Shown piece after piece: positions 6,101-30,240 of a DNA stretch of 64,000 bases. The position numbers were made by a program, and so were the translations under genes. Source of the DNA: Actinomyces oricola (GTDB lineage: Bacteria; Actinomycetota; Actinomycetes; Actinomycetales; Actinomycetaceae); NCBI RefSeq assembly GCF_004104015.1, contig NZ_RYFV01000004.1, positions 1 through 64,000 of the forward strand. The letters are read 5' to 3'. The number at the start of each line of letters is the position of its first letter. Positions within the stretch are counted from its first letter, which is position 1. Below the pieces are notes generated by a model, which saw only the letters and a list, made by a program, of their open reading frames with translations, did not search any database and was not told where the DNA came from.

Positions 6101-7363
6101 TCATTCGTCCGACTTGTCCGGCTGCTCGGCTGTGGCGCCGCCTCGGCGGTCCTTGCGCAATCCCGCGGCGAACGAGGCCGCAAGCACGGTCATGGCCCCG
6201 GTGTAGGCCACCGAGGCCCCCAGGAGCCCGTGGGCCGGCACCAGCACGAGGCACAGGACGGTAATGGCGCCGGCAGCGACCACGTATCCGACGAAGACGA
6301 GTTTCTGGCGCCTCATGGTGGTCAGCGCGTAATACAGGATCACCCCCGCCGAGTTCATTGCGCCCCCGGCGACCAGCACCATCAACTCCAGCCTGAGCCC
6401 AGACACGTCCTGTCCGAAGATGAGGCCCAGAATTGGCACCCCAACAGCATAGGTGACGACGGTCACAACTATGGAGGCGGCCAGAGTGCTGAGCAGGCCT
6501 CGCTTGATCACGGCCGTGAATCCCGCCCAGTCGCCCTCCACCCATCGCCTCGCCATGCGCGTGAGCAGGGGGCGGAAGACTAGGAGCGACAACAGGTTAA
6601 TGGCCACGGCCGGCATGTAGATAATGGCGAAGTACCCCTGGGCGGCCGAGTCCAGAAAATGGTCGATGGCATACCTCGGCACATTAACCAAATACATGGC
6701 GATAAAGGATGCCAGAAACAGGGGCAGGCACTCTGCCAACAGTCTCTTTATGCGCCGTACATCCCACTGCGGGCGCAGCGAGAATAATGCGCGGGCAGGC
6801 GGGAGGAAGGCCGCCGTCATCACCATCAGGGAGACGAGCAGGGTCGTAATGGTGGAGACGAGTAGATTCCTGAAGATAATGAGCGCCGCAGAGAAGACGG
6901 CCGTGGTGGCCACGGTGCGCAAAAAACTCGCCCTGCCCCCGATGTCCAGGCGCCCGGCGCGTTGGAACTCGCTGTAGAACACGTCCTCGAAGGCGTCGAA
7001 CAATCGCAGTGAGGCCACCAGTGCGATCAGCACAACGAGGAAGGCGGTGTCGCCGGAGACCATCGCATAGCCCACGATCCCCAGCACCATGAGGGTGACC
7101 GTGACCAGTCTGGTCGCCAGGTAGGTGCCGAAGGAGAAGCGGTGGCCAACGTCGGTGACGTGGTAGGTCCTGACCTCGTACATGCCGAGCGTCTGGAATT
7201 GCTGCCCCACCGCGATCGCCAGCGAATAGATCCCAGTGGCCTGAATCCCGGCCGTGCGAGTGACGACCATGAGCATAATGACCAGCGACAACGACCCCAT
7301 CAGGGACGCGGCGGTGTTCCAGAAGTAATCGCGGCTGAGCTGCGACCTGTCATTGACGGGCAC
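6101..7363 (-). CDS. Oligosaccharide flippase (Wzx/MOP family)
   Basis: A 420-residue polytopic protein with about 12 predicted spans and the MOP-family opening RDYFWNTAASLMGSLSLVIM. It would move lipid-linked oligosaccharide from the inner to the outer leaflet. It starts 2 bases after the stop of the upstream licD, so it belongs to the phosphocholine operon. That linkage suggests its cargo is the repeat unit carrying phosphocholine, added before export. A second MOP flippase lies at 39200-40573, so the locus likely exports at least two lipid-linked glycans besides the ABC-exported one. Confidence 0.85.
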   Translation of the reverse strand: MPVNDRSQLSRDYFWNTAASLMGSLSLVIMLMVVTRTAGIQATGIYSLAIAVGQQFQTLGMYEVRTYHVTDVGHRFSFGTYLATRLVTVTLMVLGIVGYAMVSGDTAFLVVLIALVASLRLFDAFEDVFYSEFQRAGRLDIGGRASFLRTVATTAVFSAALIIFRNLLVSTITTLLVSLMVMTAAFLPPARALFSLRPQWDVRRIKRLLAECLPLFLASFIAMYLVNVPRYAIDHFLDSAAQGYFAIIYMPAVAINLLSLLVFRPLLTRMARRWVEGDWAGFTAVIKRGLLSTLAASIVVTVVTYAVGVPILGLIFGQDVSGLRLELMVLVAGGAMNSAGVILYYALTTMRRQKLVFVGYVVAAGAITVLCLVLVPAHGLLGASVAYTGAMTVLAASFAAGLRKDRRGGATAEQPDKSDE

Positions 7364-7365
7364 GG

Positions 7366-8235
7366 TCAGACATCCCGAAAGCTGTGGGGACCGAAATCGA
7401 CGTGGAAGGGCTGGTGGTTCCTCCGCTCCTCTTGAGGGGGAAGCTCCATGTATTCGCCGTAACCGCGCCTGAGCACAGTGTCATAGCTTTTCGACAGCCT
7501 CACCGTAATGGTCTCGAAAGGGACCTCGACCGTGGGGAGGAGTTCATTGCGCCGCACCGACCACTGCTTGGGATCCCGCGTGGAGAAGTCGGCGAGCCAT
7601 GGCGAATCGGTCCCCTCGAATTGGCGCGCCGCCCGCTCCCAGCGCCGTTGGAGCGCGCGCGGCGTTACGCCCAGCACCCGCAAAGTCCAGTGGGTGGCGT
7701 GCATCACCGCCACTGCTAGTTGTCGAGCGGGAGTAGGCAGGCTGATCGCCGGGCTCGGGGTCCCCCTGAGGAATAGCAGGCGGCCCCAGAGCCATGTCCT
7801 GCGACTTTGGCGACGGAAAGCCGCATTGTCCAAGGGCATGGTGTCCAGGGGGAAGACGTCGACGCCAATCGGCATCCGGTACGTCCGATTCTTCGCTGCC
7901 TGCGAGATGAATTCGGTTCCAGCCAGTCCCAGGACCGCGAACGTGGTCGGATAGTCCGCACTAGTGCGCGGGCTGACCAGGGAGAAGTCCTGGCCCAGGT
8001 GCGCGGGCGCCTCAGCCAAGAACCTCTCATAGTCCGATCGTTCCATACACACGTCGGCGTCGTCGTCCCAGGGGATGAATCCCTGATGGCGCACCGCCCC
8101 GATCGCAGTCCCGCCGTAGACCGTGTAGGGAATCCCCAATTCCTCACAGACGCGGTCGAGTTCTGCCAGCACGTAGGTGGTGGCGCGCTGAATGCGTCCC
8201 AGCAGGTCGGGATCCTCAGACGGAGCGAGGGCCAT
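7366..8235 (-). CDS. licD: LicD family phosphocholine transferase (first of two adjacent)
   Basis: A 289-residue cytosolic protein of the LicD nucleotidyltransferase fold, which moves phosphocholine from CDP-choline to a glycan. It has YTVYGGTAIGAVRHQGFIPW followed by DDDAD, the conserved catalytic acidic cluster, near residues 45-70. The ATG at 8235 is preferred because AAGGA sits 7 bases upstream. A GTG at 8253 is also possible; it overlaps the previous stop (GTGA) and would add 6 residues. It follows a second licD (8250-9122) with the same core but many differences elsewhere, so the two enzymes probably modify different sugar positions, as LicD1/LicD2 do in pneumococcus. Choline as substrate is inferred from the LicA/LicC fusion and LicB neighbours. 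Confidence 0.85.
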   Translation of the reverse strand: MALAPSEDPDLLGRIQRATTYVLAELDRVCEELGIPYTVYGGTAIGAVRHQGFIPWDDDADVCMERSDYERFLAEAPAHLGQDFSLVSPRTSADYPTTFAVLGLAGTEFISQAAKNRTYRMPIGVDVFPLDTMPLDNAAFRRQSRRTWLWGRLLFLRGTPSPAISLPTPARQLAVAVMHATHWTLRVLGVTPRALQRRWERAARQFEGTDSPWLADFSTRDPKQWSVRRNELLPTVEVPFETITVRLSKSYDTVLRRGYGEYMELPPQEERRNHQPFHVDFGPHSFRDV

Positions 8236-8249
8236 AACCTCATCCTTTC

Positions 8250-9122
8250 TCACGGGAGCGCGTCGGCGTAAGGGCCGAAGTCGACCAGGTGCGGCTTATG
8301 GTTCATTCTCTTGTCTAGGGGAGGAAGCTCCATGTAGTCACCGTAGGTGCGGCGCAGAAGCGCATCATAGTGGCGGGCGAGCTTGACCGTGATCCCCTCG
8401 AAGGGGACATCAAGGGCCGGATAGAGCTCTTCCCTGGTAACGACCCAGTTCTGCGGATCGCGCATGGTGAAGTCGGCCATGCGCCCGGTCTCCTCGTTCT
8501 CATAGCGCCGCACGGCCTTCTCCCAGCGGGCCTGAAGGAATCTGGGGGTCACGTGCAGGCAGCGCATGAGCCAGTGGGCCGCCGTGGTCGCGGTATAGAT
8601 CATGGCGCGCTTGGGTCCAGTAATACCAATGAGGTAGGGCCTGGGGGTCCCCAGGAGGAACAGCAGCCGGCCCCAAATCCAACTCCGGCGACTCATGGCG
8701 CGGAACGCCCGGGGCGACAGCGGAATGTTGTCGACGGGGAGGATGTCGAGGAAGAACGGCATGCGGTACGCCGAGTCCTTGGCGAACTCGGGGATGAGCA
8801 GGGTGCCGGTAAGCACCATCTTGGTGAACATGAAGGGGAAGTCCGGGACGGTGCGGGTGTTGTCCAACCGGTAGTCCGGCCCCAGGAGCGCCGGCGCCTC
8901 CTTAAGGAACCGCTCGTAGTCGGCGCGCGTCATGAGCACGTCGGCGTCGTCATCCCAGGGGATGAATCCCTGATGGCGCACCGCCCCGATCGCGGTGCCG
9001 CCGTACACCACATACGGGATGTCCAGCTGGCGGCACACGCGATCGAACTCCCCGAGGATCCTCGTGATCAGGACATGAATCCGGTCCAGGAGCAGTGAGT
9101 CGGCGGAGTCATTAGGCGTCAT
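8250..9122 (-). CDS. licD: LicD family phosphocholine transferase (second of two adjacent)
   Basis: A 290-residue paralogue of the neighbouring LicD. It shares VYGGTAIGAVRHQGFIPW and the DDDADV acidic motif, then diverges (LMTRADYERFLKEAP and onward). Both end with a PPxxxRxNHxPxxVDFGP-like tail, so they arose by duplication. The ATG at 9122 was chosen for a TGGGA about 6 bases upstream; an ATG two codons earlier (9128) is equally possible. It lies about 100 bases after licB, with no obvious terminator between. Its role is transfer of phosphocholine from CDP-choline to a cell-surface glycan precursor, inferred from family and operon. Confidence 0.85.
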   Translation of the reverse strand: MTPNDSADSLLLDRIHVLITRILGEFDRVCRQLDIPYVVYGGTAIGAVRHQGFIPWDDDADVLMTRADYERFLKEAPALLGPDYRLDNTRTVPDFPFMFTKMVLTGTLLIPEFAKDSAYRMPFFLDILPVDNIPLSPRAFRAMSRRSWIWGRLLFLLGTPRPYLIGITGPKRAMIYTATTAAHWLMRCLHVTPRFLQARWEKAVRRYENEETGRMADFTMRDPQNWVVTREELYPALDVPFEGITVKLARHYDALLRRTYGDYMELPPLDKRMNHKPHLVDFGPYADALP

Positions 9123-9220
9123 GCGCATCCCATCAACAGAAAGGCCCTCCCCCTGCGGGCGGGATCCTTCGGCCCATACTCTCACAGGCTCTCACAGGCG
9201 CCCGCAGGGCGAGGTTGTGC

Positions 9221-10201
9221 TCAACTCCGCGCGGTCAGGCGGTCTTCTTCGGGATTCTTCGGGCCGGGCGCCGACCGGAGCGTGGCGAACCTCAGTTCCT
9301 TCCAGTCGGAGGTCGCCGCCAGGACCGTGCCCGTGAGGATGACCACGCAGCAGGCGATCTGCAGGGGGGTCGGCACGGTGCCCTGCAGCACCAGGGCGAA
9401 GATGACCGCCCACGCCGAGTAGGAGATGTTCAGGGCCATCCCCCGGGAGGCGCCGATCGTGCCCAGCGCCTTGTAGTAGAAGAGGTATGAGGTGGTGCCC
9501 GCGATGGCGGCCAGGGCGATGATCCCGGTGGCCGGTGTGAGGGCCGCGTGGGCGGAGAAGCCGAGGGCCCCCGCGATCGGGGCCACCACGAGGAGGTAGG
9601 CCAGACCCGAGGTCGTCTGCCGGATCTGCAGGGCGGTCTCGTTGTCCACGGAGTCATCGCGCATACCCCAGGTGAGGATGACCGCCTCGGAGCCCCAGCC
9701 GAAAACGCAGGCCAGCGCCGCGACGATCCCCAGGATCGCGTTGCCGTCGCCGGCGTCGGCGGAGGAGGACCAACCGATGGCGATGATCGCGGCCAGGGCC
9801 ACGAGGAGGGCCACGATCTGGCGCGGCCTCATGCGCTCGCCGAGGATGAGGAAGGCGAGCAGGGTGCCCAGGGCCGGGTAGAAGGTGGAGATGATCGCCG
9901 TATAGGAGGGTCCGATGTTGTTGATGGCGATGAGGTAACCGCTCATGCCGACCGGCCCGCCGAGCAGGGCGGCCAGCACCACGACCCGCCCCGAGCGCGT
10001 GCGCAGCGCAGCGAGGGTGTGACCCAGGCGCCCGCGCGCTCCCATGTAGGCCACGAGGAGCAGCGCTGAGATCACGTCGTGGATGAGCGCGCTCGCGATG
10101 GGGGCCTGCGAGGCCCCGAGGAAGGGGGCCAGGGCGACGGCCATGGCCAGGATGACGGTGTCGAGGCCCCAGGTGGCCCCGCTGAGGATTCCGTATTTCA
10201 T
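9221..10201 (-). CDS. licB: EamA/DMT-family transporter, probable choline permease (LicB-like)
   Basis: A 326-residue protein with about ten hydrophobic helices in two repeated halves, the EamA/DMT architecture. The start MKYGILSGATWGLDT is like LicB choline importers of Haemophilus and Streptococcus. Its ATG overlaps the stop of the upstream LicA-LicC fusion by 4 bases (ATGA, 10198-10201), so uptake and activation of the substrate are translated together. Position between the kinase/cytidylyltransferase and the licD genes reproduces the licABCD order of function. Substrate specificity is inferred; DMT proteins also carry other small metabolites. Confidence 0.8.
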   Translation of the reverse strand: MKYGILSGATWGLDTVILAMAVALAPFLGASQAPIASALIHDVISALLLVAYMGARGRLGHTLAALRTRSGRVVVLAALLGGPVGMSGYLIAINNIGPSYTAIISTFYPALGTLLAFLILGERMRPRQIVALLVALAAIIAIGWSSSADAGDGNAILGIVAALACVFGWGSEAVILTWGMRDDSVDNETALQIRQTTSGLAYLLVVAPIAGALGFSAHAALTPATGIIALAAIAGTTSYLFYYKALGTIGASRGMALNISYSAWAVIFALVLQGTVPTPLQIACCVVILTGTVLAATSDWKELRFATLRSAPGPKNPEEDRLTARS

Positions 10202-12033
10202 GCCGTCCTCCTGACCTTGGCGCCGACGCTAGGAGCGGGGGCGGCCAGGAGGGGCTCGTCGCCTTCGTAGGAGGCCAGCAATGCGTCGACGTAATCGACC
10301 GCATGGCGGTAGTAGATGAAAAGCCACTCGCCGACGTCGTCGCCCTCGGCCTCCTTGGCCAGGGACCACACGTACCAGCACCAGCCCGCCAGGACCACAT
10401 AGGACCAGAAATGGCGCCGTTCAACGGCGGTGGGGGTCTGTCCGAAGTAGGCTCCCAGAGCCGTCTCGGCCTGCTCGGCGGTAAGTTCGGCACACACGAC
10501 GAGGGTCCCGAAGTCGCTGGCGACATCGGACATGCCGGCGTACTCCCAGTCAATGAGGTCAATGTGCCCGGACTCGTCCACGAGGAAGTTCAGGGGGAAG
10601 AAGTCATTGTGGCTGGGAGTGATGGGGAAACCGTCGGCGTCGGCGTAGGACTTCAATCGCATGACCTTGTCCCGCAGCTCGAAATAGCCGGGGACGTCAA
10701 TGGGGCCGTAGTGCTCAAGCAACTTCTCATAGGCGATCCCCTCCTGGACGAAGTCGAAGGTCCGGGACAGCTGTGCGCCACTGTCATGGAGCTCGCGGTC
10801 CATGACCATGGCCCGCTCGAGTTCTCCGGGCCGAGTGGGTTCCAGGTTGCGCGAGCCGCAGATGAAGTGGGATATCTTCCAGCCCTTGACCGGGTCGCCG
10901 GTGAGGAAGGTGCGGTCCAGGCCGAGTCGGCCGGCCAGGTGCAGGGCCTCGAACTCGGCGCCCCGATTGACGATCTTGTCTGTGCCGACGCCGGGGTGAC
11001 GGTAAACGTACTCCTTGTCCCCCACCGTGAAGTGGCAGGAGAGGTTGGTGATCCCCTGCTTGAGCGGGTAGAGGTCGTGAATCTCCGTCTTGGCGCAGCC
11101 CAGCACGGCGGTTATGTTGTCGAAGACTTCGGAGTCCACGTTCTCCAGGAACAGGGGGTCGAAGTCGCGGATCTCATCGACCGAGTCGAACTCGTTAATG
11201 ACGCCGGCCGGGTAGCGGCGGATGACCATGTCGAGGTCCTTAATGTGCTCAAGGTAGATCGACTCCCAGAGCTTGGGCGCCGTCTCGGGCTGGTGGTAGA
11301 CCTCCTCCAGGACGCGGCGGAAGGTAGCCGAGAACTCACGATCGAAGTAGACGTGGCCGAGCATGGTCCAGGCGTCATGACCGCCGATGGTGGCCCCCGT
11401 GATCCGATCGTTCGCCCCGGTGACCAGGCACCACTCGGGTGTGGGGCCCTCGGCGTATTGGGCGGAGTAGTAGGCCTTGTAGACATGGGACTCGAAGGGG
11501 TTGACCGTGAAGTAGTCGTCGGAGGAGCACACGTAGGTATTGCCCAGGCCCTCTCGAACCACCCATAGGGAGCCGTTGTTGTTCCTCTGGACGTAGTCGT
11601 CGTTGACGACGATCCGCACCCCGAACTGCTCGGCCAGATAGAAGAAGTACTCCTTCTTGTAGCCGACCACAAGCGTGACGTCGGCGATCCCGGCCTCGTG
11701 CAGCTGCTTGATCTGCCTCTCGACCAGGACCTCTCCGTGCACGCGCAGCGTGCCCTTGGGGCGCTCGTAGGAGATTGGGGCCAGGCGCTGCGACAACCCG
11801 GCGGCCATAATGACCGCGTTGTCCACCCGGTAGGGCTCCAGCGCACTCCTACCGGACTCGGTAATGCGTCGCTCGGCAATGTGCCCGAGTGCCTCGCACT
11901 CCCTGACCACCGCGTTCACGCTCCCCAGGGACAAGCCCGTGGAGGCGTGGATCTGGCGCTGGGTGAGCGCGGCATCCGCTCGGAGGAGCGCGTACAGGAC
12001 GTCGAACTGGGGCTGCGAGAGCGTACCCGCCAT
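10198..12033 (-). CDS. Winged-helix / CTP:phosphocholine cytidylyltransferase / choline kinase fusion (LicC-LicA)
   Basis: A 611-residue three-domain protein. Residues 1-65 form a winged helix-turn-helix (LTQRQIHASTGLSLGSVNAV). About 70-310 is a sugar-nucleotidyltransferase-type domain with VIMAAGLSQRLAPISYERPK, like LicC. About 320-590 is a choline/aminoglycoside-kinase fold with GITNLSCHF near its start, HNDFFPLN and LIDWEYAG, like LicA. One polypeptide would thus phosphorylate choline, convert it to CDP-choline and, through the N-terminal domain, possibly sense substrate and control transcription. The ATG at 12033 follows AGGTGG; an upstream GTG at 12045 is less likely. First gene of the lic operon; its start is preceded by repeated GTTCRAG sites. 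Such fusions occur in other Gram-positive lic loci; the choline specificity is inferred. Confidence 0.88.
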   Translation of the reverse strand: MAGTLSQPQFDVLYALLRADAALTQRQIHASTGLSLGSVNAVVRECEALGHIAERRITESGRSALEPYRVDNAVIMAAGLSQRLAPISYERPKGTLRVHGEVLVERQIKQLHEAGIADVTLVVGYKKEYFFYLAEQFGVRIVVNDDYVQRNNNGSLWVVREGLGNTYVCSSDDYFTVNPFESHVYKAYYSAQYAEGPTPEWCLVTGANDRITGATIGGHDAWTMLGHVYFDREFSATFRRVLEEVYHQPETAPKLWESIYLEHIKDLDMVIRRYPAGVINEFDSVDEIRDFDPLFLENVDSEVFDNITAVLGCAKTEIHDLYPLKQGITNLSCHFTVGDKEYVYRHPGVGTDKIVNRGAEFEALHLAGRLGLDRTFLTGDPVKGWKISHFICGSRNLEPTRPGELERAMVMDRELHDSGAQLSRTFDFVQEGIAYEKLLEHYGPIDVPGYFELRDKVMRLKSYADADGFPITPSHNDFFPLNFLVDESGHIDLIDWEYAGMSDVASDFGTLVVCAELTAEQAETALGAYFGQTPTAVERRHFWSYVVLAGWCWYVWSLAKEAEGDDVGEWLFIYYRHAVDYVDALLASYEGDEPLLAAPAPSVGAKVRRTA

Positions 12034-12289
12034 AGAAGCCACCACCTGTTCAAGAGAAGGTCAACTGATTGCGTGTTCGAGACTAGCACTCGAACTCACG
12101 ATCTTGAACTTCAGTTTGTGTCGGCTGCCTCTCACGGCCGCCCGTCGGCCTCGCCGGCGCCACCGGCCGCCCTACGCCGTCGACCCCACCCCCGGGACCG
12201 GCCACCGGGGGCGTTAGACTCATCTGCGACCCGGCCCTCCGACGCAGGCGCATCCATGACCAACGCCGACCAACAAGGACTATCGCCCT
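12034..12289. other. Divergent intergenic region between lic operon and rmlCD
   Basis: 256 bases separating two divergent starts. The left third holds the predicted lic promoter/operator. In the right half a -10-like TAGACT at 12215-12220 could serve rmlCD on the plus strand, giving a leader of about 60 bases. AAGGA precedes the rmlCD ATG. The middle (12120-12200) is C-rich and featureless. Confidence 0.45.
12048..12109 (-). promoter_or_regulatory. Predicted lic operon promoter with four GTTCRAG operator half-sites
   Basis: On the minus strand a -10-like TAGTCT (12080-12085) sits 17 bases after a weak -35-like TTCAAG (12103-12108). The 7-mer GTTCRAG or its complement occurs four times: 12048-12054, 12075-12081, 12089-12095 and 12103-12109. 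The two central copies form a perfect inverted repeat with a 7-base spacer that overlaps the -10 box. This is a natural operator layout for a repressor, and the encoded protein itself carries a winged helix. The sites are read directly from the sequence; the regulator assignment is inference. Confidence 0.5.
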
Positions 12290-13723
12290 ATGACTAAGAC
12301 CAAGACCCTGGGCATTGAGCCCACTCCGATCCCCGGGTTCCTGCGGATCGACCTGAGCGTTCACGGTGACAACCGGGGCTGGTTCAAGGAGAACTGGCAA
12401 CGCGAGAAGATGACTGCGCTGGGCCTGCCGGACTTCGGCCCGGTTCAGAACAATGTCTCCTTCAATGATGAGGTCGGCGTCACCCGCGGTATTCACGCCG
12501 AGCCCTGGGATAAGTACGTCTCCGTGGCCACCGGCCGCGTCTTCGGCGCCTGGGTCGACCTGCGCGAGGGCCCCAGCTTCGGGACGCTCTACACCACCGA
12601 GATCGACCCCTCTGTGGCGGTCTACGTTCCCCGGGGCGTGGGCAACGCCTACCAGACACTGGAGCCGAACACCGCCTACACCTACCTGGTCAACGCCCAC
12701 TGGTCCCCCGACGTCGAGTACACCTTCCTCAATCTCGCCGACGAGACCGCCAATGTGCCCTGGCCCATACCGCTGGATGAGGCCATTATCTCGGACAAGG
12801 ACAGGGGCCACCCCCGCATGGCCGCGGTGGTGCCCTTCCCCACCCCGGAGACGACGCCCTCTCGTGGGCGCCGTGTGCTGGTCACCGGCGACAAGGGCCA
12901 GCTGGGCCGTGAGCTCATGCGCCTTCTCCCCCGTGCCGGCTACACCGCTACCGGGGTCGACCTGCCCGAGGTCGATATCTCCGACGCCGCCACCATGAGG
13001 GACTACCCCTGGGATGAGTACGACATTATTGTCAATGCCGCCGCATGGACCGACGTCGACGGTGCCGAGTCCCCCGAGGGGCGTCGCCTGTCGTGGCGGG
13101 CCAACGCCACCGGCCCGGCCAACCTCGCCCGCGCCGCCTCCCAGCACAACCTGACCCTGGTGCACATCTCCAGCGAGTACACCTTCGACGGCTCCACCGC
13201 AATCCACACCGAGGACGAGCCTCCCAGCCCATTGGGCGTCTACGGCCAGTCCAAGGCCGGTGGCGACGCCGCCGTCATGGGCACCCCCCGCCACTACCTG
13301 GTGCGCACCTCCTGGGTCGTGGGCGAGGGCAAGAACTTCGCCAAGACCATGGCGGCGCTGGCCGCTAAGGGCGTGGACCCCACGGTGGTCAGCGACCAAG
13401 TGGGCCGCCTCACCTTCACCGCCGACCTGGCGGCAGGCATCATCCACCTGCTGTCCAGCGGCGCGGAGCACGGCACCTACAATCTCTCCGGCGAAGGGCC
13501 AGTGGTCTCCTGGTGCGACATTGCCAAGCGCGTCTATCAGCTCACGGGCCATGACCCGAACCGCGTCACCCCGGTCAGCACCGAGGAGTACTTCGCGGGC
13601 CGGGACGTCGCCCCCCGCCCACTGAGTTCCACCCTGGACTTGAGCAAGATCGAAGCCACCGGCTTCACCCCGGCCAACTCCATGGAGCGCCTGGACACCT
13701 ACATGGCCGCCCTCCAAGCCTGA
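12290..13723 (+). CDS. rmlCD: Bifunctional dTDP-4-dehydrorhamnose 3,5-epimerase / reductase (RmlC-RmlD fusion)
   Basis: A 477-residue fusion catalysing the last two steps of dTDP-L-rhamnose synthesis. Residues 1-180 are an RmlC cupin (GFLRIDLSVHGDNRGWFKE, then NNVSFNDEVGVTRGIHAEPW with the catalytic His, then VYVPRGVGNAYQTLEPNTAYTY). Residues about 193-477 are an RmlD short-chain reductase with VTGDKGQLGREL as nucleotide-binding loop and YGQSKAGGD as YxxxK. Fusions of this type occur in several Actinobacteria. RmlB is about 11 kb downstream on the same strand; RmlA is not in the window. Together with RgpF-type enzymes and GT2 rhamnosyltransferase-like proteins this indicates a rhamnose-containing wall glycan. 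Confidence 0.92.
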   Translation: MTKTKTLGIEPTPIPGFLRIDLSVHGDNRGWFKENWQREKMTALGLPDFGPVQNNVSFNDEVGVTRGIHAEPWDKYVSVATGRVFGAWVDLREGPSFGTLYTTEIDPSVAVYVPRGVGNAYQTLEPNTAYTYLVNAHWSPDVEYTFLNLADETANVPWPIPLDEAIISDKDRGHPRMAAVVPFPTPETTPSRGRRVLVTGDKGQLGRELMRLLPRAGYTATGVDLPEVDISDAATMRDYPWDEYDIIVNAAAWTDVDGAESPEGRRLSWRANATGPANLARAASQHNLTLVHISSEYTFDGSTAIHTEDEPPSPLGVYGQSKAGGDAAVMGTPRHYLVRTSWVVGEGKNFAKTMAALAAKGVDPTVVSDQVGRLTFTADLAAGIIHLLSSGAEHGTYNLSGEGPVVSWCDIAKRVYQLTGHDPNRVTPVSTEEYFAGRDVAPRPLSSTLDLSKIEATGFTPANSMERLDTYMAALQA

Positions 13724-15552: not shown

Positions 15553-15878
15553 GGCGCCACCTTCCCTAATAGACAACGGTGTATCCATTGTCAGCCACGC
15601 AGATTACCTTAGGTTAGCCACAGAGGGCTCACAGCGGAACAGCGCCGCTGGGCGCGCCGCCAGGAGCTGTCCCCATTGGGTCCTGATGCCCACGGCTCCT
15701 GATACTCATCAGGGGCAAGGGTTGCGGCCGACCTCACCGCAGCACGACCTGGCCGTGCTCCTCCGGTGACCTAGACTGACTCGGTCGCCGACTGAGGCCG
15801 GCTCAGGACGCTCAGGACATCGAGCAGGTGACAGCGACATCACGACCATCCCAGCATCATCCCGACGCGAGCGAAGGC
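15553..15878. other. Divergent promoter region between DUF2142 gene and wzm
   Basis: 326 bases without a gene. On the plus strand TAGACT at 15772-15777 is a plausible -10 for the ABC exporter operon. On the minus strand the moderately AT-rich stretch at 15570-15615 probably holds the DUF2142-gene promoter. TTAGGTTAGCC at 15609-15619 equals half of a DtxR/IdeR iron box, but the other half is absent. Nothing else stands out. Confidence 0.35.
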
Positions 15879-16712
15879 ATGACCCAGAAGACAGACATAC
15901 GCACGCCTCTACCGCTCATGCAGCAGTGGGCCCTCATTAACGCCTTCGGCCAACGCGACCTGAAGGCGAAGTTCAACGGCACGCTCCTGGGGTGGCTGTG
16001 GTCGCTCGTGGTGCCACTGGCGACACTGGGCATCTACACCCTCATTTTCGGTGGGTTGTTCAAGATGCAGGTGCCCGGCGTCACCGACCGGCACGCGGGC
16101 ATCTCCTTGTTCGCCGTGTGGCTCTTCGCCGGGTTGGCCATCTGGGGCTACTTCCAGAACTCCATCAACGCCGGCATTAACGGCCTACTGTCCACTGGCG
16201 GCCTACTCCAGAAGGTGTACTTCCCGTCCTACGCCCCGGTCCTGGGCGCCGGGCTGGCGGTAGGAACGCAGTCCGCCATTGAGGGCGCTCTGCTGCTCGT
16301 GGTTCTGGCCCTATTGCGGCACGCCGCCTGGTCCTGGCTCCTGCTGCCCGTCTTCCTGGTTATTTTGGCCGTCTTCGTTCAGGCGGTCGCCGTCGTCCTG
16401 GCGGTATGGAATGTCTACGTGCGCGACCTCGCCCAACTCGTCGGGGTCATCCTCCAACTCATGTTCTACGCCACCCCCATTATCTACTCGGTCGCCATTG
16501 TGCCCGAGATCTTATGGGGGCTTCCCGTCCAGTTCATAGTCGCCCACATGCCCATTGCTGAGTTCATTGACCTTTTCCGCACGATCACTTACGGCGGTGA
16601 AACTGGCACCTGGACCGCCTGGGCGGCCTGCGCCGGCTGGGCCCTAGCGGCCACGGCCTGCGCCACCTGGGCGCACCGCCGCTGGGGGGCCGACCTGGGA
16701 GAGAGGATTTGA
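15879..16712 (+). CDS. wzm: Polysaccharide ABC exporter permease (Wzm)
   Basis: A 277-residue ABC-2 permease with six predicted spans. QWALINAFGQRDLKAKFNGT, then LLGWLWSLVVPL is the standard opening of Wzm/TagG-type O-antigen and teichoic-acid permeases. The next gene, read through a 2-base gap, is its Wzt ATPase. It forms the channel that exports a completed lipid-linked polysaccharide. The ATG at 15879 begins the conserved part; a GTG at 15828 would add 17 polar residues and cannot be excluded because neither has a strong ribosome site. The presence of an ABC exporter next to RgpF-type proteins matches the rhamnan-type pathway. Confidence 0.88.
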   Translation: MTQKTDIRTPLPLMQQWALINAFGQRDLKAKFNGTLLGWLWSLVVPLATLGIYTLIFGGLFKMQVPGVTDRHAGISLFAVWLFAGLAIWGYFQNSINAGINGLLSTGGLLQKVYFPSYAPVLGAGLAVGTQSAIEGALLLVVLALLRHAAWSWLLLPVFLVILAVFVQAVAVVLAVWNVYVRDLAQLVGVILQLMFYATPIIYSVAIVPEILWGLPVQFIVAHMPIAEFIDLFRTITYGGETGTWTAWAACAGWALAATACATWAHRRWGADLGERI

Positions 16713-16714
16713 GC

Positions 16715-17998
16715 ATGGGTGCAGGAAACCTCGCTGTCGCCGAGGATGCAGCAATCGTTGTCAGCAACGTCTCGAAGACCTTCGAGATGCAATCCGATCG
16801 TCGAGACACGTTCAAGGAGCGCTTCGTCCGGGGCAAGGCGAAGGCTCGCCGTGAGCGGTTCCATGCGCTCAACGACGTCTCCTTCTCCGTGCGCCGGGGC
16901 TCCACCTTCGGCCTCATTGGCCACAATGGCTCGGGGAAGTCCACCATGCTCAAGATGCTCGCGGGCGTCTACCGGCCCTCTTCGGGAACCATTAAGGTTG
17001 CCGAGAAGGTTGATGCCCTCCTGGAGTTGGGCGCCGGGTTCCACGGCGAACTCACCGGTCGGGAGAACATATTCCTCAATGGGGCGATTCTGGGGCGGAC
17101 TAAGAAGCAGATTCAGGACACCCTGGAGTGGATCATTGACTTCGCCGACATTGGCGAGTTCATCGACCAGCCGGTGAAGGTCTACTCCTCTGGTATGACA
17201 GTGCGGCTCGGCTTCGCCGTCGCGGTGGCCATCCAGCCGCGGATCCTCATTGTTGACGAGATCATTGCCGTAGGCGATGAGGAGTTCCAGCGCAAGTGCT
17301 TCGACTACATGCGCCGGCTGCGCGACGAGGGAACCACCATCGCCCTGGTGACCCACTCCCTATCCATTGCCCAGGAAATGTGCGACGAGGTGGTCTGGCT
17401 CGACCACGGCAAGGTCCGTGCCGTTGGCCCGGCCGACAAAACCATCTCCGCCTACCTCGCCGCGGTCAATGCGAAGGAGGCCGAGCACCGGGCCGCCGAC
17501 GGGCAGGCCACCGACGACGCCTACCGGGAGAACCAGGGGACCGGGGCCTGCCGTATGACCGGGGTTGAGGTCCTGGACGCCAACGGCCGGCCAACACCCT
17601 TTCTCATCACCGGGGAGGCCGCCACGCTCCGCATCCACGTCCACGCCTACACCGACCTGACCGAGGTCGAACTTGGCCTGGCGTTCGTCACCGACCAGGG
17701 GGCGTCGCTGGCCGGCCCCAATTCCCGCTGCGCCGGAACCCTGTACTCCCTACGCGCCGGCGAGGACACCTACATCGATTACCGCATGGAACCGGTACTC
17801 TTCGAGCCAGGGCGTTTGCGGCTCACCACATGCTTCATGAGTGCGGGAGAAACCTACGACTACTCCGACCGGCGGACAACGCTAATGATTCGTTCCGACA
17901 AGGTCATGGAGGAGCCCGGGCTCTTCCTGCTCCCAGGTGGCCGCTGGAGCGCATCCGCAGGGGTTCCGGCCTTGGACCAGAACGTGGAGGGATCATGA
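16715..17998 (+). CDS. wzt: Polysaccharide ABC exporter ATPase with C-terminal carbohydrate-binding domain (Wzt)
   Basis: A 427-residue ATPase. Walker A GHNGSGKST is at 69-77, followed by the signature YSSGM and Walker B ILIVDEI. After residue 255 comes an extra beta-rich domain (ITGEAATLRIHVHAYTDLTE and onward) like the Wzt C-terminal domain that recognises the terminal modification of the finished chain in E. coli O8/O9a. The ATG at 16715 follows GAGAGGA by 7 bases. It ends in an ATGA overlap with the next small gene. The C-terminal domain suggests that this exporter checks a chain-end signal before transport. Confidence 0.9.
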   Translation: MGAGNLAVAEDAAIVVSNVSKTFEMQSDRRDTFKERFVRGKAKARRERFHALNDVSFSVRRGSTFGLIGHNGSGKSTMLKMLAGVYRPSSGTIKVAEKVDALLELGAGFHGELTGRENIFLNGAILGRTKKQIQDTLEWIIDFADIGEFIDQPVKVYSSGMTVRLGFAVAVAIQPRILIVDEIIAVGDEEFQRKCFDYMRRLRDEGTTIALVTHSLSIAQEMCDEVVWLDHGKVRAVGPADKTISAYLAAVNAKEAEHRAADGQATDDAYRENQGTGACRMTGVEVLDANGRPTPFLITGEAATLRIHVHAYTDLTEVELGLAFVTDQGASLAGPNSRCAGTLYSLRAGEDTYIDYRMEPVLFEPGRLRLTTCFMSAGETYDYSDRRTTLMIRSDKVMEEPGLFLLPGGRWSASAGVPALDQNVEGS

Positions 17999-18237
17999 CA
18001 GAGGACGAATACAGTGAGGAGATTCGCAGGCTTCGTGCGGCGCTGCACTCCTCCCGCTACGAGGTCGCGGTTCTGAGTCGTCGCAACGAGCAGTTGGAGC
18101 ATGACCTGGAGGTCGCCATCCGTCAGTTGCGCCGCTCCTGGGAGCAGCTGACCGCCCTGCGCCGCTCAGTGTCCTGGCAGGCCACCAGGGGCGTGCGCCA
18201 GGCCAAGCGGTTCATCCAGACAGGGCTCGGTCGATGA
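17995..18237 (+). CDS. Small coiled-coil protein between Wzt and RgpF
   Basis: An 80-residue protein that overlaps Wzt by ATGA and RgpF by ATGA, so it is certainly part of the operon. Residues about 5-60 are rich in Leu, Glu and Arg with heptad spacing (EEIRRLRAALHSSRYEVAVL, then RRNEQLEHDLEVAIRQLRRS), a clear coiled coil. The tail is basic (RQAKRFIQTGLGR). No membrane span or signal peptide. Coiled coils set chain length as molecular rulers in the WbdA-WbdD O-antigen system, so a scaffold or ruler role with the RgpF proteins is worth testing. No named family recognised. Confidence 0.75.
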   Translation: MTEDEYSEEIRRLRAALHSSRYEVAVLSRRNEQLEHDLEVAIRQLRRSWEQLTALRRSVSWQATRGVRQAKRFIQTGLGR

Positions 18238-19061
18238 GGCGTGGGCGCGCCCTGGGACCGTACGTCTGGCAGGTCACGCGCGGGCAGGTCACCTGTGAGC
18301 GCGGAAGCGCCGCGCAATTGCGGAACCGGGAGCGCATTGCCGTCGTCGCCCAGTACTCGGCCGATCCCCTCCAGTCACGCTCCTTGTCGGAGTACCTGAC
18401 CGCCTTGGACTCCAATGGCTATGCCACCGTCCTGGTCTCGACCTGCGAGTCCCCCGGGCCGCTTCAGTTCCCTCACGGCCTCCCCGAAACGACCGTGATT
18501 ATGCGGCGCCCCAATCGTGGGTACGATTTCGGCTCCTGGGCCACCGCCCTGGGCGTCATCCCGGCTATTCGCCGCGCACCAGTGGTCCTGTTGACCAATG
18601 ACTCACTCGTGGGCCCCCTGGCCCCGATTGACCACCTGCTCGACTGGGCGGCGCAGGACGGCCCGGACATCCGGGCGCTGACCTCCTCTCTCCAGTTCAT
18701 CTACCACCTTCAGAGTTACTTCCTGGCATTCCGCGGAGGCATCCTCCAGGACCGCACCTGGATGGACTTCTTCAATGGCGTGCGCGTGGAGGCCAATAAG
18801 GACGCCGTTGTGCTGCGCTACGAGTTGGGCCTGTCGCGGATGTGCTTCTCCGAGGCCTACTCCTCCCAGGAGTGGGTCACTGGGGCGGACATTGGTCTCC
18901 CCTTCGAGAACCCGACGATCGGCGGATGGAAGGGTCTATTGGACTCCGGGGTCCCGTTTCTGAAGCGAACCATCGTGACCCACCCGTCGACCGTAGACCT
19001 GGCCGCCGAAGCCGTGCCCTACATCCAACACCGCTACGGCGTCGACGTCACCTCGTGGTGA
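18234..19061 (+). CDS. RgpF-family (rhamnan synthesis protein F) glycosyltransferase
   Basis: A 275-residue soluble protein of the RgpF family, which acts in rhamnose-glucose polysaccharide synthesis. It contains the typical block RPNRGYDFGSWATALG followed by VVLLTNDSLVGPL, and later FRGGIL and WVTGADIGLPF. It is shorter than streptococcal RgpF (about 580 residues) and lacks an additional C-terminal region. The ATG overlaps the coiled-coil gene stop (ATGA). The next gene carries a related N-terminal domain, so two RgpF-like modules act in the same chain. Exact linkage unknown. Confidence 0.8.
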   Translation: MRRGRALGPYVWQVTRGQVTCERGSAAQLRNRERIAVVAQYSADPLQSRSLSEYLTALDSNGYATVLVSTCESPGPLQFPHGLPETTVIMRRPNRGYDFGSWATALGVIPAIRRAPVVLLTNDSLVGPLAPIDHLLDWAAQDGPDIRALTSSLQFIYHLQSYFLAFRGGILQDRTWMDFFNGVRVEANKDAVVLRYELGLSRMCFSEAYSSQEWVTGADIGLPFENPTIGGWKGLLDSGVPFLKRTIVTHPSTVDLAAEAVPYIQHRYGVDVTSW

Positions 19062-19074
19062 GAAAGGACCACCT

Positions 19075-21144
19075 ATGCCAGCACCGACCACCTGGGGTCT
19101 TCAGCGGCGTGCGCAGTACTTCGCCGCCCGCGCCCGGATTGCAGCGGCGAACCTGATCTCCACGGGAAACATCCACGGCGATGTCGTCAAGCACCCCGCT
19201 GACTTCGCCGGCTTCGTCGCCCGCCAAGGCGGTCGGCAGAGCTCGGGCTTCCCCGATCACTGGCGCATTGACCCGCAGTTCGAGATCACTGGCCCCGCGC
19301 GGGTGGCCGTCGTCATCCACTGCTACTACGCCGAGCTGCTGCCCGAGCTCTTGGCCCACTTGCACAATGTCCCCGTCGACTTCGACCTGTTCATTACCAA
19401 CGCCTCCCCCGCTGCGATTACCGTCCCCACGGATCTGGAGCACATGAGGCACGGGGTCGTCGTCGAGGTGGACAACCACGGCCGCGACATCTTCCCCCTT
19501 ATTCAGCTGGTCAACTCCGGTGCCCTGGACCCCTATGAGATGGTGCTCAAGCTCCACACCAAGTGCAGCGCCTGGCGTCAGGACCACCCCGAGCTCTCCG
19601 GCGACGGCGAGTCCTGGAAGGACCAGTTCCTCACCGACCTGGTGGGCTCCCGCGAGACGGTGGAGGCGAACCTCAACGCCTTCGCCACCGACAGCTCCCT
19701 GGGCGTGCTCACCGCCACCGACGCGATCGTCGGCCCTGAGTTCTGGGGCGGGGACAAACGGATCGTCACTCAGCTCCTACGCCGCCTCGAGATGCGGGTC
19801 GAGTCGCGCTCCCTGCGCTTCGCCTCAGGCTCCATGTACTGGGCCCGGGCCTTCGTCCTCCAAGGACTACGCGCCCTCAACCTCCAGGCCGAGGATTTCG
19901 ACGAGGAAGCCGGCCAGGTTGACGGAACCACCGCCCATGCCCTAGAGCGCATCATTGGCATTCTCACTCATGAGGCGGCGCTGCGCACCGCCGAGCCCGA
20001 CCACGTGGTCTCACTGCGTGAGGCCGGCTGGGATCCCCGCGGTTACACCCGGTTCGCCCCGGAGGCCCCCCGCACTCCGGCGGCCACCATTGTGCCGTTC
20101 TACCTGCCGCAGTTCCATGAGTGCCCCCAGAACAACCGGTGGTGGGGTAAGGGCTTTACCGAGTGGTTCAATGTCAGCGCCGCTGTACCGGCCTGGCAGG
20201 GCCACTACCAGCCCAAACAGCCCACCGAGTTGGGCTACTACGACCTGGCGCAGGACGAGCCCCGTCGCCGCCAAGCGGCGCTCGCCCAGGAGCACGGTAT
20301 TAGCGCCTTCATGTACTACTACTACTGGTTCTCCGGTGAACGGCTCCTTCACGTGCCCATTGAGCGGCTCCACGCTTCCAGTGCCCATGACATGCCCATG
20401 CCCTTCTGCCTCATGTGGGCCAATGAGAACTGGACCCGGCGCTGGGACGGCCGCTCCGAGGACGTCCTCGTGGGGCAGGACTACTCCAAGGTCCCCGCGG
20501 AGGACTTCATTGACGACGTTATGGAGTTCCTGCTCGACCCGCGCTACCTCCGCGTGGACGGCAAGGCGATTCTGGCTGTCTACCGCCCCGCCCAGATGGA
20601 CAACTTCGCCGATGTGGTCTCGGTCTGGCGCGAGCGCGCCCGCGCCGCCGGCGTCGGCGAACTGAAGGTCCTCGCCGTTTCGGTCGCCCAGGAGTTCGAC
20701 GGCCTGGGGCAGGAGACCACCTCCCTGGGCATTGACGGACAGCTGCAGTTCCCCCCGCACAACCTGCCGTGGATCAGTGGGCCGACCACCCGCGTGCGCC
20801 TGGACCGCCGCTGGCGCGGCAACTTTATGAGCTACCAGGCCATTGCCAAGGCCTCGCTGCGCGCTGCCTCCCGGCTCCCTGATAACGAGTACCCGGGAGC
20901 CATGGTCACCTTTGACAACACCGCGCGCCGGCAGTGGCGGGCGGACGCCTGGTACGGCTCGAACCCCTACACCTTCCACCGTTGGCTCACCGGCCTGGTC
21001 CGGGCGGTCACCGACCGCGCCCCCCAGGAGCGCCTGGTGTTCATTAATGCCTGGAACGAATGGGCTGAGGGGGCTGTGCTGGAGCCCACCACCCGCTTCG
21101 GGCGGACCTACCTCCAGGCGGTCCGCAATGTGGCCTGGAGCTGA
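19075..21144 (+). CDS. RgpF-like / WbsX (GH99-like) two-domain protein
   Basis: A 689-residue soluble protein. Residues about 70-320 resemble RgpF (HCYYAELLPELLAHLHNVPV, VDNHGRDIFPLI, LKLHTKCSAW, SGSMYWARAF). Residues about 335-685 form a WbsX/GH99-like domain starting FYLPQFHECPQNNRWWGKGF and including HYQPKQP, YYYYWFSGERLL, MWANENWTRRWDG and FINAWNEWAEG. WbsX domains are common in polysaccharide clusters; they are usually fused to or beside GTs, and their activity is uncertain (hydrolase-like fold, possibly glycan processing or chain termination). It starts 13 bases after the RgpF gene with an AGAAAGGA ribosome site, and ends the exporter operon. No signal peptide, so it acts in the cytosol. 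Confidence 0.85.
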   Translation: MPAPTTWGLQRRAQYFAARARIAAANLISTGNIHGDVVKHPADFAGFVARQGGRQSSGFPDHWRIDPQFEITGPARVAVVIHCYYAELLPELLAHLHNVPVDFDLFITNASPAAITVPTDLEHMRHGVVVEVDNHGRDIFPLIQLVNSGALDPYEMVLKLHTKCSAWRQDHPELSGDGESWKDQFLTDLVGSRETVEANLNAFATDSSLGVLTATDAIVGPEFWGGDKRIVTQLLRRLEMRVESRSLRFASGSMYWARAFVLQGLRALNLQAEDFDEEAGQVDGTTAHALERIIGILTHEAALRTAEPDHVVSLREAGWDPRGYTRFAPEAPRTPAATIVPFYLPQFHECPQNNRWWGKGFTEWFNVSAAVPAWQGHYQPKQPTELGYYDLAQDEPRRRQAALAQEHGISAFMYYYYWFSGERLLHVPIERLHASSAHDMPMPFCLMWANENWTRRWDGRSEDVLVGQDYSKVPAEDFIDDVMEFLLDPRYLRVDGKAILAVYRPAQMDNFADVVSVWRERARAAGVGELKVLAVSVAQEFDGLGQETTSLGIDGQLQFPPHNLPWISGPTTRVRLDRRWRGNFMSYQAIAKASLRAASRLPDNEYPGAMVTFDNTARRQWRADAWYGSNPYTFHRWLTGLVRAVTDRAPQERLVFINAWNEWAEGAVLEPTTRFGRTYLQAVRNVAWS

Positions 21145-24398: not shown

Positions 24399-25424
<1,026 letters not shown>

Positions 25425-25551: not shown

Positions 25552-27777
25552 TCAGTTGTCCAGGACGCCGGTACGCGGGTTCAGGTGGTACCACTTCGAG
25601 TTGATATAGGCCCAGCCCGTTGCCATGGCGCCAGTTTGGGGAACCAGGTAATACCAGGAGGAGCCCAGTTTGAGCCACCCGGTCGCCATGGCCCCATTAC
25701 CGGGGTTGAGGTAGTACCACGACGAGCCCACGTAGATCCAGCCAGTCGCCATGGCGCCGGAGCCCCGGTCGAAGTAGTACCACTTCGAGTTGATGTACGC
25801 CCAACCACGCGCCATGGCGCCAGTTTGGGGGGTCAGGTAATACCAGGAGGAGCCCAGTTTGAGCCACCCGGTCGCCATGGCCCCATTACCGGGGTTGAGG
25901 TAGTACCACGACGAGCCCACGTAGATCCAGCCAGTCGCCATGGCGCCGGAGCCCCGGTCGAAGTAGTACCACTTCGAGTTGATGTACGCCCAGCCGGTCG
26001 CCATGGCCCCGGAACCGGGGTCCAGGTAGTACCACCGTGACCCGTCCTTGAGCCATCCCAGAGTCAAGACCCCTGGGGAGGCGTAGTGGAACCATGATCC
26101 GCCGCCGTTCACCCAACCGACGGCGGTGGCGGAGCGCCCCGAGATCTGAGCCTGTTTTTGCGCAATGCTGCGGATGGTCCCGAGCAGGGAGTAGCCGACA
26201 TTACCGGGGCAGGAGGTGGCACCCGAATCCCGGTGCCCGAAGATCCTCGGCAACTGGAGCACAGTACCCGCCTGGTACTTCTCAGTCGTGCGCACCAGAA
26301 TACCTGCGACCTCATTGACGTTCATGTAGCCGCCTCGCCCCAGGAACCACCCGGCGAGCTTGCCGACCCGGTCCAGAGTCACGCTCGTGGGGGACACCGA
26401 GGAGTAGTCGCCCATCATGGAGATACCCATGGAGCCAGTGTTGACACCGCGGGCGTGAGCTCCAATGACCATGGTGCCGGGAGCGGCGCTCAGAGTCCCC
26501 GAGCGCCCCTCGAAGACCTGCCCGTACTTGTCGACCAGGAAGTTGTAGCCAATGTCGCCCCAGTCCAGGGTCACCGCGTGGTAGTAGTAGATGCCGCGCA
26601 CAATCGAGGCCGACTGTCCGGCGGTGTAATTGTTGGTCCCCGCCGTGTGATGGACCACCACGTGGCCGGCCGACACATACTCGGGGCTCCACGTCATGTA
26701 GGAAGGGTTGGCCCCCCACTCGGCCCGGGTGTGCACGGGAACGGGCAGGGAGCCCGCCGTCGTCGTGGCCGCGACTATAGCCGGCTGCACTGCCTGGCCG
26801 ACCTCAGCGTCAACGTTGGCTGCCTGCACGCCCGCTGTTGCGGCTGCCGTCTCAACAGCGGGCAGGGCCGCGGGCGCCGTGGTGGTCAGCGGGGTTGTGA
26901 AGCTCGCCTCCTGCGCCGTCGGGCCGGGGCTCGCCTCCTGCGCCGGGTCCGGGGCGGTTTCCTCATGCGCCGCGTCAGGGGTGGCGACCTGTGTGGGCTC
27001 CGCCTGCGTCGTCTCCAGGTCACTGACCTCAAGGGTCTCCTCGCCGGAAGGATCGGCAGGCACCATTGCCAGGGCGAGATCCGCAGGCAGGTCCGCCCGA
27101 TCCCCGACAATGCTGACCTGGACCGCGTCGGCGCCGCCGGTGATGAACTCCTCAGTGCCGGCAACACCACCAGTGTCCTTGCCCGCCCCGCTGTCCGCGC
27201 CCTCGTACCAGGGCGTCCATGAGCCATCCTCACGCACGCGCAGGTATATTGACAGCCCCTCGGGGAGAGTGTCGGTTCCGCTCCAGCGGAAGCCGGCCAC
27301 GAGGAAATCATCGACCACGAGGGGGTCGGTCAGGACCACGGCATCCGCGAGCGGGTCCGCACTGGAGTCCGCCGGGGCGCCACCGACAGCGGGCACCACC
27401 ATCGCACCGGAGTCCGCCGAGGCGGGCTCGGCTTCCGCAGCGGGACTGGTCTCCTCGGCGGCCTCGCCCTGTGAATCTGAATCGGTGTCACTCTCCGCAG
27501 CGGGGTCGGCCTTCTCGGCGCCCTCGCCTTCTGAGCCTTCTGAGGCCGCATCGTCCTCCGCAGCCGGACTGGTCTCGTGGGGTGCGCTAGCCGCAGTCCC
27601 GTCAAGGCCCGCCTCTCCGGCTTCGGTGACCTCCCCCGTGGAGGTCGTCAAGGGGAGGATCTGCACGGGTGCTGGTGTTGTGGTGGCGTCGTCCGCCGTC
27701 GCCGTGGCTATGGGGACCAGGCCGAGGGTGAACAGCGCGCAAACGACGACGGAACTCAGAAACCGGGAAGCGGGCAT
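25552..27777 (-). CDS. Secreted N-acetylmuramoyl-L-alanine amidase with choline-binding repeats
   Basis: A 741-residue exported wall hydrolase. Residues 1-28 are a signal peptide. About 30-140 and 230-345 are Ala/Glu/Pro-rich linkers flanking a beta domain found in actinobacterial amidases (LVAGFRWSG, YLRVREDGSWTPWYEG, ITGGADAVQVSI). About 350-540 is a PGRP/amidase-2 domain with VVHHTAGTN, GDIGYNFLVD, VIGAHARGVNTGSMGI and FGHRD-x5-CPG, which include the zinc ligands. The last 190 residues hold nine repeats of the choline-binding type (SSWYYLNPGNGAMATGW). The start has GGAAGG upstream. The repeats match CW_binding_1 and, with the lic operon 14 kb away, suggest binding to phosphocholine on the cell's own wall glycan. 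Related repeats also bind other glycans, so choline binding needs testing. Confidence 0.9.
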   Translation of the reverse strand: MPASRFLSSVVVCALFTLGLVPIATATADDATTTPAPVQILPLTTSTGEVTEAGEAGLDGTAASAPHETSPAAEDDAASEGSEGEGAEKADPAAESDTDSDSQGEAAEETSPAAEAEPASADSGAMVVPAVGGAPADSSADPLADAVVLTDPLVVDDFLVAGFRWSGTDTLPEGLSIYLRVREDGSWTPWYEGADSGAGKDTGGVAGTEEFITGGADAVQVSIVGDRADLPADLALAMVPADPSGEETLEVSDLETTQAEPTQVATPDAAHEETAPDPAQEASPGPTAQEASFTTPLTTTAPAALPAVETAAATAGVQAANVDAEVGQAVQPAIVAATTTAGSLPVPVHTRAEWGANPSYMTWSPEYVSAGHVVVHHTAGTNNYTAGQSASIVRGIYYYHAVTLDWGDIGYNFLVDKYGQVFEGRSGTLSAAPGTMVIGAHARGVNTGSMGISMMGDYSSVSPTSVTLDRVGKLAGWFLGRGGYMNVNEVAGILVRTTEKYQAGTVLQLPRIFGHRDSGATSCPGNVGYSLLGTIRSIAQKQAQISGRSATAVGWVNGGGSWFHYASPGVLTLGWLKDGSRWYYLDPGSGAMATGWAYINSKWYYFDRGSGAMATGWIYVGSSWYYLNPGNGAMATGWLKLGSSWYYLTPQTGAMARGWAYINSKWYYFDRGSGAMATGWIYVGSSWYYLNPGNGAMATGWLKLGSSWYYLVPQTGAMATGWAYINSKWYHLNPRTGVLDN
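25622..25999. repeat. Tandem 189-base repeat inside the amidase gene
   Basis: Two nearly identical 189-base units lie head to tail (25622-25810 and 25811-25999). Each encodes three 21-residue choline-binding-type repeats (AYINSK, IYVGSS and LKLGSS types). They differ at only a few bases, for example where VPQTGAMATG is TPQTGAMARG. This is a recent in-frame duplication, and the array can expand or shrink without a frameshift. Confidence 0.85.
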
Positions 27778-30156: not shown

Positions 30157-30240
30157 CCCCGGCCTCCCGCCGGCGACAGGCGCCCCTGAGGGTTCCTTGT
30201 GGCCCCTCGCGGCACGCGCGAGGACGCGCTCACGCCTTGG

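What the first reader, a model, noticed from the sequence alone, without database searches (positions are those of the whole stretch)
25552..27777. Choline-binding-repeat amidase next to its own putative ligand pathway
The amidase ends in nine repeats of the choline-binding type (SSWYYLNPGNGAMATGW), and the genes to make a choline-marked glycan lie about 14 kb away. In pneumococcus the same pair (lic genes plus LytA-like choline-binding autolysins) controls lysis and surface protein docking. Co-location suggests an independently evolved or transferred write-and-read system in an actinobacterium, with the enzyme held on the wall by phosphocholine.
Basis: partly seen in the sequence, partly recalled or inferred. 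Interest (0 to 1): 0.85.

Follow-up and report, generated by a model that had tools for sequence, protein, structure and literature searches.

The report
Wall amidase with matching choline-reading tail
A cell-wall-cutting enzyme of an Actinomyces bacterium ends in a tail of the kind that binds choline, and in the relatives compared this enzyme carries that tail only in genomes that also have the genes for putting choline on a surface glycan; where those genes are missing, the same enzyme carries another tail or none.

Summary
Confirmed: 25552-27777 (-) encodes a PGRP-type amidase ending in nine GW...WYY choline-type repeats, the only such protein found in its draft genome. Choline-writing genes (LicC-LicA fusion, LicB, two LicD) lie at 7366-12045; LicCA is 13.5 kb away.

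The write-and-read reading gains comparative support. In 213 family genomes, LicCA and choline repeats occur together in 54, LicCA alone in 18, repeats alone in 5, neither in 136. Of 78 amidase orthologues whose tail could be read, choline repeats end 34 of 40 in LicCA+ and 0 of 38 in LicCA- genomes; the latter carry LGFP, FG-GAP-like, other or no tails. The amidase sits near rmlB with or without lic genes, so the pair is not a transferred cassette: the tail is what changes. The core is PGRP-like; no LytA among its solved matches.

Against: six LicCA+ amidases lack the tail; corrected for ancestry p is about 0.03 in the family, 0.25 in the genus alone; outside the family the link is not significant. 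Choline binding and glycan chemistry are untested. Phosphocholine and Lic-1 genes in Actinomyces are in print; I found no report of the tail exchange.

The parts
25552..27777 (-). secreted wall amidase with choline-type tail, 741 aa
26200..26664 (-). Amidase_2 (PGRP-like) catalytic domain, aa 372-526
   Evidence: His-His-Thr, His-Arg-Asp and Cys-Pro invariant in both ortholog sets
25555..26118 (-). nine choline-type repeats, aa 554-741
25618..25995 (-). two copies of a 189-bp block (repeats 3-5 and 6-8), 95.8% identical: a recent duplication
10198..12045 (-). fusion of an HTH, LicC (CTP:phosphocholine cytidylyltransferase) and LicA (choline kinase)
9221..10201 (-). LicB-like choline importer (EamA)
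   Evidence: LicB 7b0k/7paf is the only solved match, E 6.1e-33
8250..9185 (-). LicD phosphotransferase
7366..8253 (-). second LicD phosphotransferase
6101..7363 (-). many-pass membrane protein, flippase-like by eye; no Pfam match
12290..13723 (+). RmlC-RmlD-like fusion for dTDP-rhamnose (assignment by eye from its translation)
24429..25424 (+). RmlB-like dehydratase, neighbour of the amidase
   Evidence: kept near the amidase in 65 of 78 ortholog loci
15828..17998 (+). ABC export pair, Wzm/Wzt type
18234..21144 (+). RgpF-like and RgpF-WbsX glycan synthesis proteins

Best explanation
The amidase is a family wall amidase that belongs to the rhamnose-glycan locus and is fitted with a reader that matches the glycan made there. 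LicB takes up choline, the LicC-LicA fusion turns it into CDP-choline, and the two LicDs place phosphocholine on the exported glycan (inferred from homology). The secreted amidase docks on that phosphocholine through its nine repeats and cuts peptidoglycan nearby (inferred). In lineages without lic genes the same amidase at the same place carries another tail.
For: Nine repeats with both Trp positions in 9 of 9; Choline_bind_3 E 6.9e-60. Complete writer: LicC E 9.7e-39 and LicA E 1.6e-27 against solved enzymes, LicB E 6.1e-33, two LicDs. Co-occurrence 54/18/5/136 in 213 genomes, and 27/4/0/18 in the 49 of the genus. Tail: 34 of 40 LicCA+ and 0 of 38 LicCA- amidases; Pfam agrees, 32 of 38 against 0 of 23. 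LicD in 6 of 6 LicCA+ and 0 of 22 LicCA- genomes tested. On the tree the tail goes with lic in about 6 independent pairs, against in 0, no difference in 3. LicCA and amidase within 31 kb in 35 of 37 genomes with both on one contig.
Against: Six of 40 LicCA+ amidases lack the tail (G004, G007, G012, G043, G049, G156). Five genomes have repeats without LicCA, one of them only 70% complete. Pair test within the genus alone: p 0.25. Outside the family: LicCA in 11, repeats in 5, both in 1 (Fisher 0.14). By sequence alone the best-scoring solved matches of the tail are carbohydrate-binding clostridial toxin repeats (ligand recalled); choline-binding proteins follow. No binding test and no glycan chemistry.
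Confidence: 0.75

Rival explanations
1. The repeats bind a sugar polymer, as related repeats do elsewhere, and their link with lic genes is one of descent and shared locus only.
For: A glucan-binding repeat model matches at E 1.5e-10; clostridial toxin repeats and glucosyltransferases are among the 48 solved matches of the tail, toxins first. Five genomes have repeats without LicCA.
Against: The glucan model gives 41.1 bits against a cut-off of 147.7 (the pneumococcal PspA and PspC models score higher, 149-182 bits, but are below their whole-protein cut-offs too). Trp in both positions in 9 of 9 repeats. The tail is absent from all 38 LicCA- amidases read although the core and place are shared.
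Confidence: 0.13
2. Amidase and lic genes came together by transfer, for example from a streptococcus or its phage.
For: Close co-location; 160 of 186 phage records matching the protein are Streptococcus phages.
Against: Lic-less congeners keep the amidase core near rmlB in 17 of 18 loci. The core is PGRP-like, not LytA-like. No phage record matches over 80% of the protein; all best places are under 60% identical. LicCA is found as a relative of 36-79% identity in 71 other genomes of the family. GC over the lic genes (63-66%) is within the 60-68% of the window's left 28 kb.
Confidence: 0.05
3. Phosphocholine serves host mimicry only; the amidase tail is a relic or reads phosphocholine of neighbours or host.
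For: 18 of 72 LicCA+ genomes have no choline repeats, so a writer works without a reader; a sialidase-like protein with choline repeats occurs in a genome without LicCA and LicD (L067).
Against: All 9 repeats keep both Trp and part of the array was duplicated recently, which does not look like decay; the tail follows the genome's own writer.
Confidence: 0.07

Closest known systems
Pneumococcal choline-binding proteins (LytA type) with the lic genes (licA, licB, licC, licD1, licD2)
   Same: An amidase with choline-type repeats in a genome with LicA, LicB, LicC and LicD; tail matches solved choline-binding proteins CbpJ, Pce, CbpF and autolysin.
   Different: Catalytic part PGRP-like with no LytA match; LicC and LicA fused behind an HTH; lic genes inside a rhamnose-glycan locus with ABC export; one reader found instead of many (the streptococcal arrangement is recalled).
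Lic-1 pathway and phosphocholine reported for Actinomyces viscosus and A. gerencseriae (PMC10434233, passages)
   Same: Lic-1 enzymes in the same genus; phosphocholine there rests on antibody recognition.
   Different: That paper's passages do not mention choline-binding proteins ('choline-binding' occurs 0 times in its main text).
Gemella wall phosphocholine with choline-binding proteins (PMC7136413, passages)
   Same: Writer and readers in one genome, outside Streptococcus.
   Different: A firmicute; no exchange of the tail of one enzyme with lic genotype in the passages seen.
Modular phage lysins with interchangeable binding parts (recalled)
   Same: One catalytic core with alternative wall-binding modules.
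   Different: Here a chromosomal amidase at a kept locus, whose tail follows the host's own glycan genes.

Membership tests
Choline-binding proteins (PF01473/PF19127 repeats) | tandem repeats over the curated cut-off | tested here: met
   199.2 bits against 27 and 116.2 against 20.5
Choline-binding proteins (PF01473/PF19127 repeats) | aromatic residues of the choline site (two Trp per repeat; site recalled) | tested here: met
   9 of 9 repeats
Choline-binding proteins (PF01473/PF19127 repeats) | binds choline, released by free choline | not testable with these tools
LytA amidases | catalytic domain nearest to LytA | tested here: not met
   24 solved matches at E 1e-5, PGRPs and PGRP-like entries, none named LytA or lytic amidase
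Lic-1 phosphocholine pathway | LicA, LicB, LicC and LicD in one locus | tested here: met
Lic-1 phosphocholine pathway | phosphocholine on the surface glycan | not testable with these tools
   needs chemistry or antibody
Glucan-binding repeat proteins (TIGR04035) | score over the curated cut-off 147.7 | tested here: not met
   41.1 bits, E 1.5e-10

The most novel reading that the evidence does not exclude
One wall amidase of the Actinomycetaceae is a socket for interchangeable glycan readers: its tail is exchanged to match the decoration that the glycan locus writes. Choline repeats read phosphocholine; the LGFP and FG-GAP-like tails of lic-less relatives would read other decorations of the same rhamnose glycan, so that comparing loci would predict the ligand of each tail.
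Probability: 0.35. Interest if true: 0.82.

Novelty: new variant of a known kind. Interest (0 to 1): 0.62.

Why it matters
The window genome has one writer locus and, as far as found, one reader, the simplest setting in which to test whether wall phosphocholine positions an autolysin outside the streptococci. It also suggests a way to find the ligands of LGFP-type tails.

Tried and rejected
Transfer of amidase plus lic genes as a cassette: rejected, since lic-less relatives keep the amidase core near rmlB. LytA homology of the core: not met. Glucan reader: weak. Phage origin: 186 phage records match, none over 80% of the query, and among the 20 listed the catalytic part is at most 44.8% identical; the viral-contig scan gave one weak repeat match. 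Co-occurrence beyond the family: not significant. A repeat-by-repeat comparison with phage Dp-1 Pal was not usable because my pattern split its repeats wrongly. The label FG-GAP-like is from my motif; Pfam FG-GAP_3 matched only 1 of 23 LicCA- amidases. Reverse-strand frames such as 12083-13759 and 30199-31716 were set aside as shadows of genes on the other strand (by eye).

Selection: of 47 genomes of the genus with an amidase hit I read 46; G019 (weak hit, no place listed) was left out. Of the 104 other family genomes with a hit I read 33 of my choosing, so the 78-row count is no random sample. Apart from G149, G151, G157, G160 and G163, the LicCA- genomes of the family have no repeats at E 1e-6, so cannot carry the tail at that threshold; the amidases of G151, G157, G160 and G163 have LGFP tails; G149 was not read. 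LicCA+ G185 and G186 also have an amidase hit and no repeats and were not read. One orthologue (L104, G020) is cut by a contig end and was left out of the tail counts; L100 is cut too and was labelled LGFP by hand from its likeness to L105.

Papers: PMC10434233, PMC8235330, PMC7136413, PMC6166536 and PMC2928729 were seen as passages around search terms; the rest as search listings. 'Not found in print' rests, in a library of open-licence papers only.

Full report
What is there. The gene at 25552-27777 (-) encodes 741 aa: a signal-peptide-like start (by eye), an acidic low-complexity part, an Amidase_2 domain at aa 372-526 whose solved relatives are peptidoglycan recognition proteins, and nine choline-type repeats at aa 554-741 with Trp in both key positions in 9 of 9. 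Repeats 3-5 and 6-8 are copies of one 189-bp block, 95.8% identical. In the 2.93-Mb draft genome (78 contigs, rated 100% complete) every match to the repeats falls in this gene (PF01473 at E 1e-3; PF19127 at E 10; the whole protein at E 1). The organism is taken to be an Actinomyces, because the nine named loci that match the amidase core are all titled Actinomyces.

The writer. 10198-12045 joins an HTH, a LicC part (best solved match 1jyk, CTP:phosphocholine cytidylyltransferase, E 9.7e-39) and a LicA part (4r77, choline kinase, E 1.6e-27). 9221-10201 has LicB (7b0k, 7paf) as its only solved match, E 6.1e-33. These solved enzymes are pneumococcal as I recall; the calls give no organism. 8250-9185 and 7366-8253 are LicD proteins. 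Around them lie rhamnose, export and glycosyltransferase genes. LicCA is 13.5 kb from the amidase.

Genome survey. In 213 genomes of the family LicCA (E 1e-40) is in 72 and Choline_bind_3 (E 1e-6) in 59: both 54, LicCA only 18, repeats only 5, neither 136 (Fisher 8e-29, not corrected for ancestry). In the genus, 49 genomes with the own one: 27, 4, 0 and 18. The five repeat-only genomes gave nothing but short matches at E 0.008-0.2 with LicCA; one, G149, is 70% complete. Eighteen LicCA- congeners gave no match at E 0.01 except HTH-only ones in two. LicD is in 6 of 6 LicCA+ genomes tested and in 0 of 22 LicCA- ones.

The tail follows the writer. I read 79 amidase orthologues, the window's included. 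One is cut before the tail. Of the other 78, choline repeats end 34 of 40 in LicCA+ genomes and 0 of 38 in LicCA- genomes (Fisher 2.7e-16, not corrected); the latter end in FG-GAP-like repeats (17), LGFP repeats (11), other sequences (8) or almost nothing (2). Pfam, run on 61 of the 79, agrees: Choline_bind_3 in 32 of 38 LicCA+ and 0 of 23 LicCA- proteins, LGFP in 2 and 10. His-His-Thr, His-Arg-Asp and Cys-Pro of the amidase are invariant in both sets. On the quick 79-row tree the tail changes 12 times and lic status 13 times; in independent pairs that differ in lic the tail goes the same way in about 6, the other way in 0, and does not differ in 3 (median p 0.031, range 0.031-0.0625); pairs that differ in the tail give 5.5, 0 and 1.5 (median p 0.031, range 0.031-0.125). 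On the careful tree of the genus (45 rows, L112 left out for gaps) it is 2.9, 0 and 2.1, p 0.25: same direction, too few pairs. Both trees warn of long branches. A clear switch is the sister pair L101 (LicCA-, LGFP) and L134 (LicCA+, choline), support 100/100.

Named relatives. A. timonensis, A. gaoshouyii and A. denticolens carry choline repeats; two A. oris strains, A. haliotis and A. bovis carry LGFP; a third A. oris is cut too early to tell; A. provencensis has neither. Their lic status was not tested, the 10-kb flanks being too short.

The place. A well-matched rmlB (60% identity or more) lies within 6 kb of the amidase in 26 of 27 LicCA+ and 17 of 18 LicCA- loci of the genus, and in 22 of 33 loci of other genera (some stretches are cut short). 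LicCA and amidase lie within 31 kb in 35 of the 37 genomes in which I read both on one contig (median 18.2 kb; G186 39.7 kb, G035 183 kb); in G005, G144, G175 and G176 they are on different contigs. In G066 and G076, of two other genera, the matches are 1.4 and 0.7 kb apart. The amidase is thus at its place without lic genes too, and co-location alone says little; the tail is what changes.

Exceptions. G004 has a choline-repeat frame of 328 aa right beside its LGFP amidase (L142:6081-7064). G007 has a LicCA frame that lacks inner parts of both enzymes, and an amidase without a tail, but still another choline-repeat protein. Its sister in the tree, G034, has a licB gene beside a tail-less amidase and no LicCA. 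G012, G043, G049 and G156 have LicCA and no repeats at all: a writer can do without a reader. G151, a repeat-only genome, has the repeats on a sialidase-like protein (L067).

Beyond the family. In an order-wide sample of 396 genomes the part outside the family has LicCA in 11, repeats in 5 and both in 1 (Fisher 0.14 with 361 genomes as I count them from the listing). That one, G409, again has a choline-repeat protein near its lic genes (L242:16880-18508).

Sequence evidence against choline. By score the first solved matches of the tail are clostridial toxin repeats, which bind sugars as I recall; CbpJ, Pce, CbpF, a phage-type lysozyme and autolysin follow. The tail's choline reading therefore rests on the Pfam match, the Trp pairs and the link with lic genes.

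What is known. The passages I saw report antibody evidence for phosphocholine and Lic-1 enzymes in A. viscosus and A. gerencseriae (PMC10434233), choline-binding proteins of A. odontolyticus (PMC6166536), and both sides in Gemella (PMC7136413). I found no report of a chromosomal amidase whose tail follows lic genotype (open-licence papers only).

Verdict. A real and probably working choline writer and reader in an Actinomyces, built on a family amidase with an exchangeable tail. Shown: domains, distances, co-occurrence, tail by genotype. Inferred: that the glycan carries phosphocholine, that the tail binds it and that this places the enzyme.

Noticed in passing
L067 (G151): A sialidase-like protein with choline repeats in a genome without LicCA or LicD; it may read phosphocholine that the cell does not make.
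   Followed up: partly
L142:6081-7064 (G004): A separate choline-repeat protein right beside an amidase that carries LGFP repeats: reader and enzyme on two genes.
   Followed up: partly
L242:16880-18508 (G409, another family of the order): A choline-repeat protein close to a lic locus, with a different N-terminal part.
   Followed up: partly
L219:4272-5609 (G007) and L113 (G034): Sister lineages with a LicCA frame lacking inner parts, or a licB left without LicCA; both amidases have no tail.
   Followed up: partly
LicCA+ amidase orthologues (alignment A2): 17 of 38 carry a further Glucosaminidase domain; the window's protein does not.
   Followed up: no
22267-24342, 28105-30156, 34230-36455: Three DUF6541 membrane proteins in one glycan locus; role unknown.
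   Followed up: no
10198-12045: The LicC-LicA fusion begins with a MarR-type HTH, as if the enzyme also sensed or regulated.
   Followed up: no
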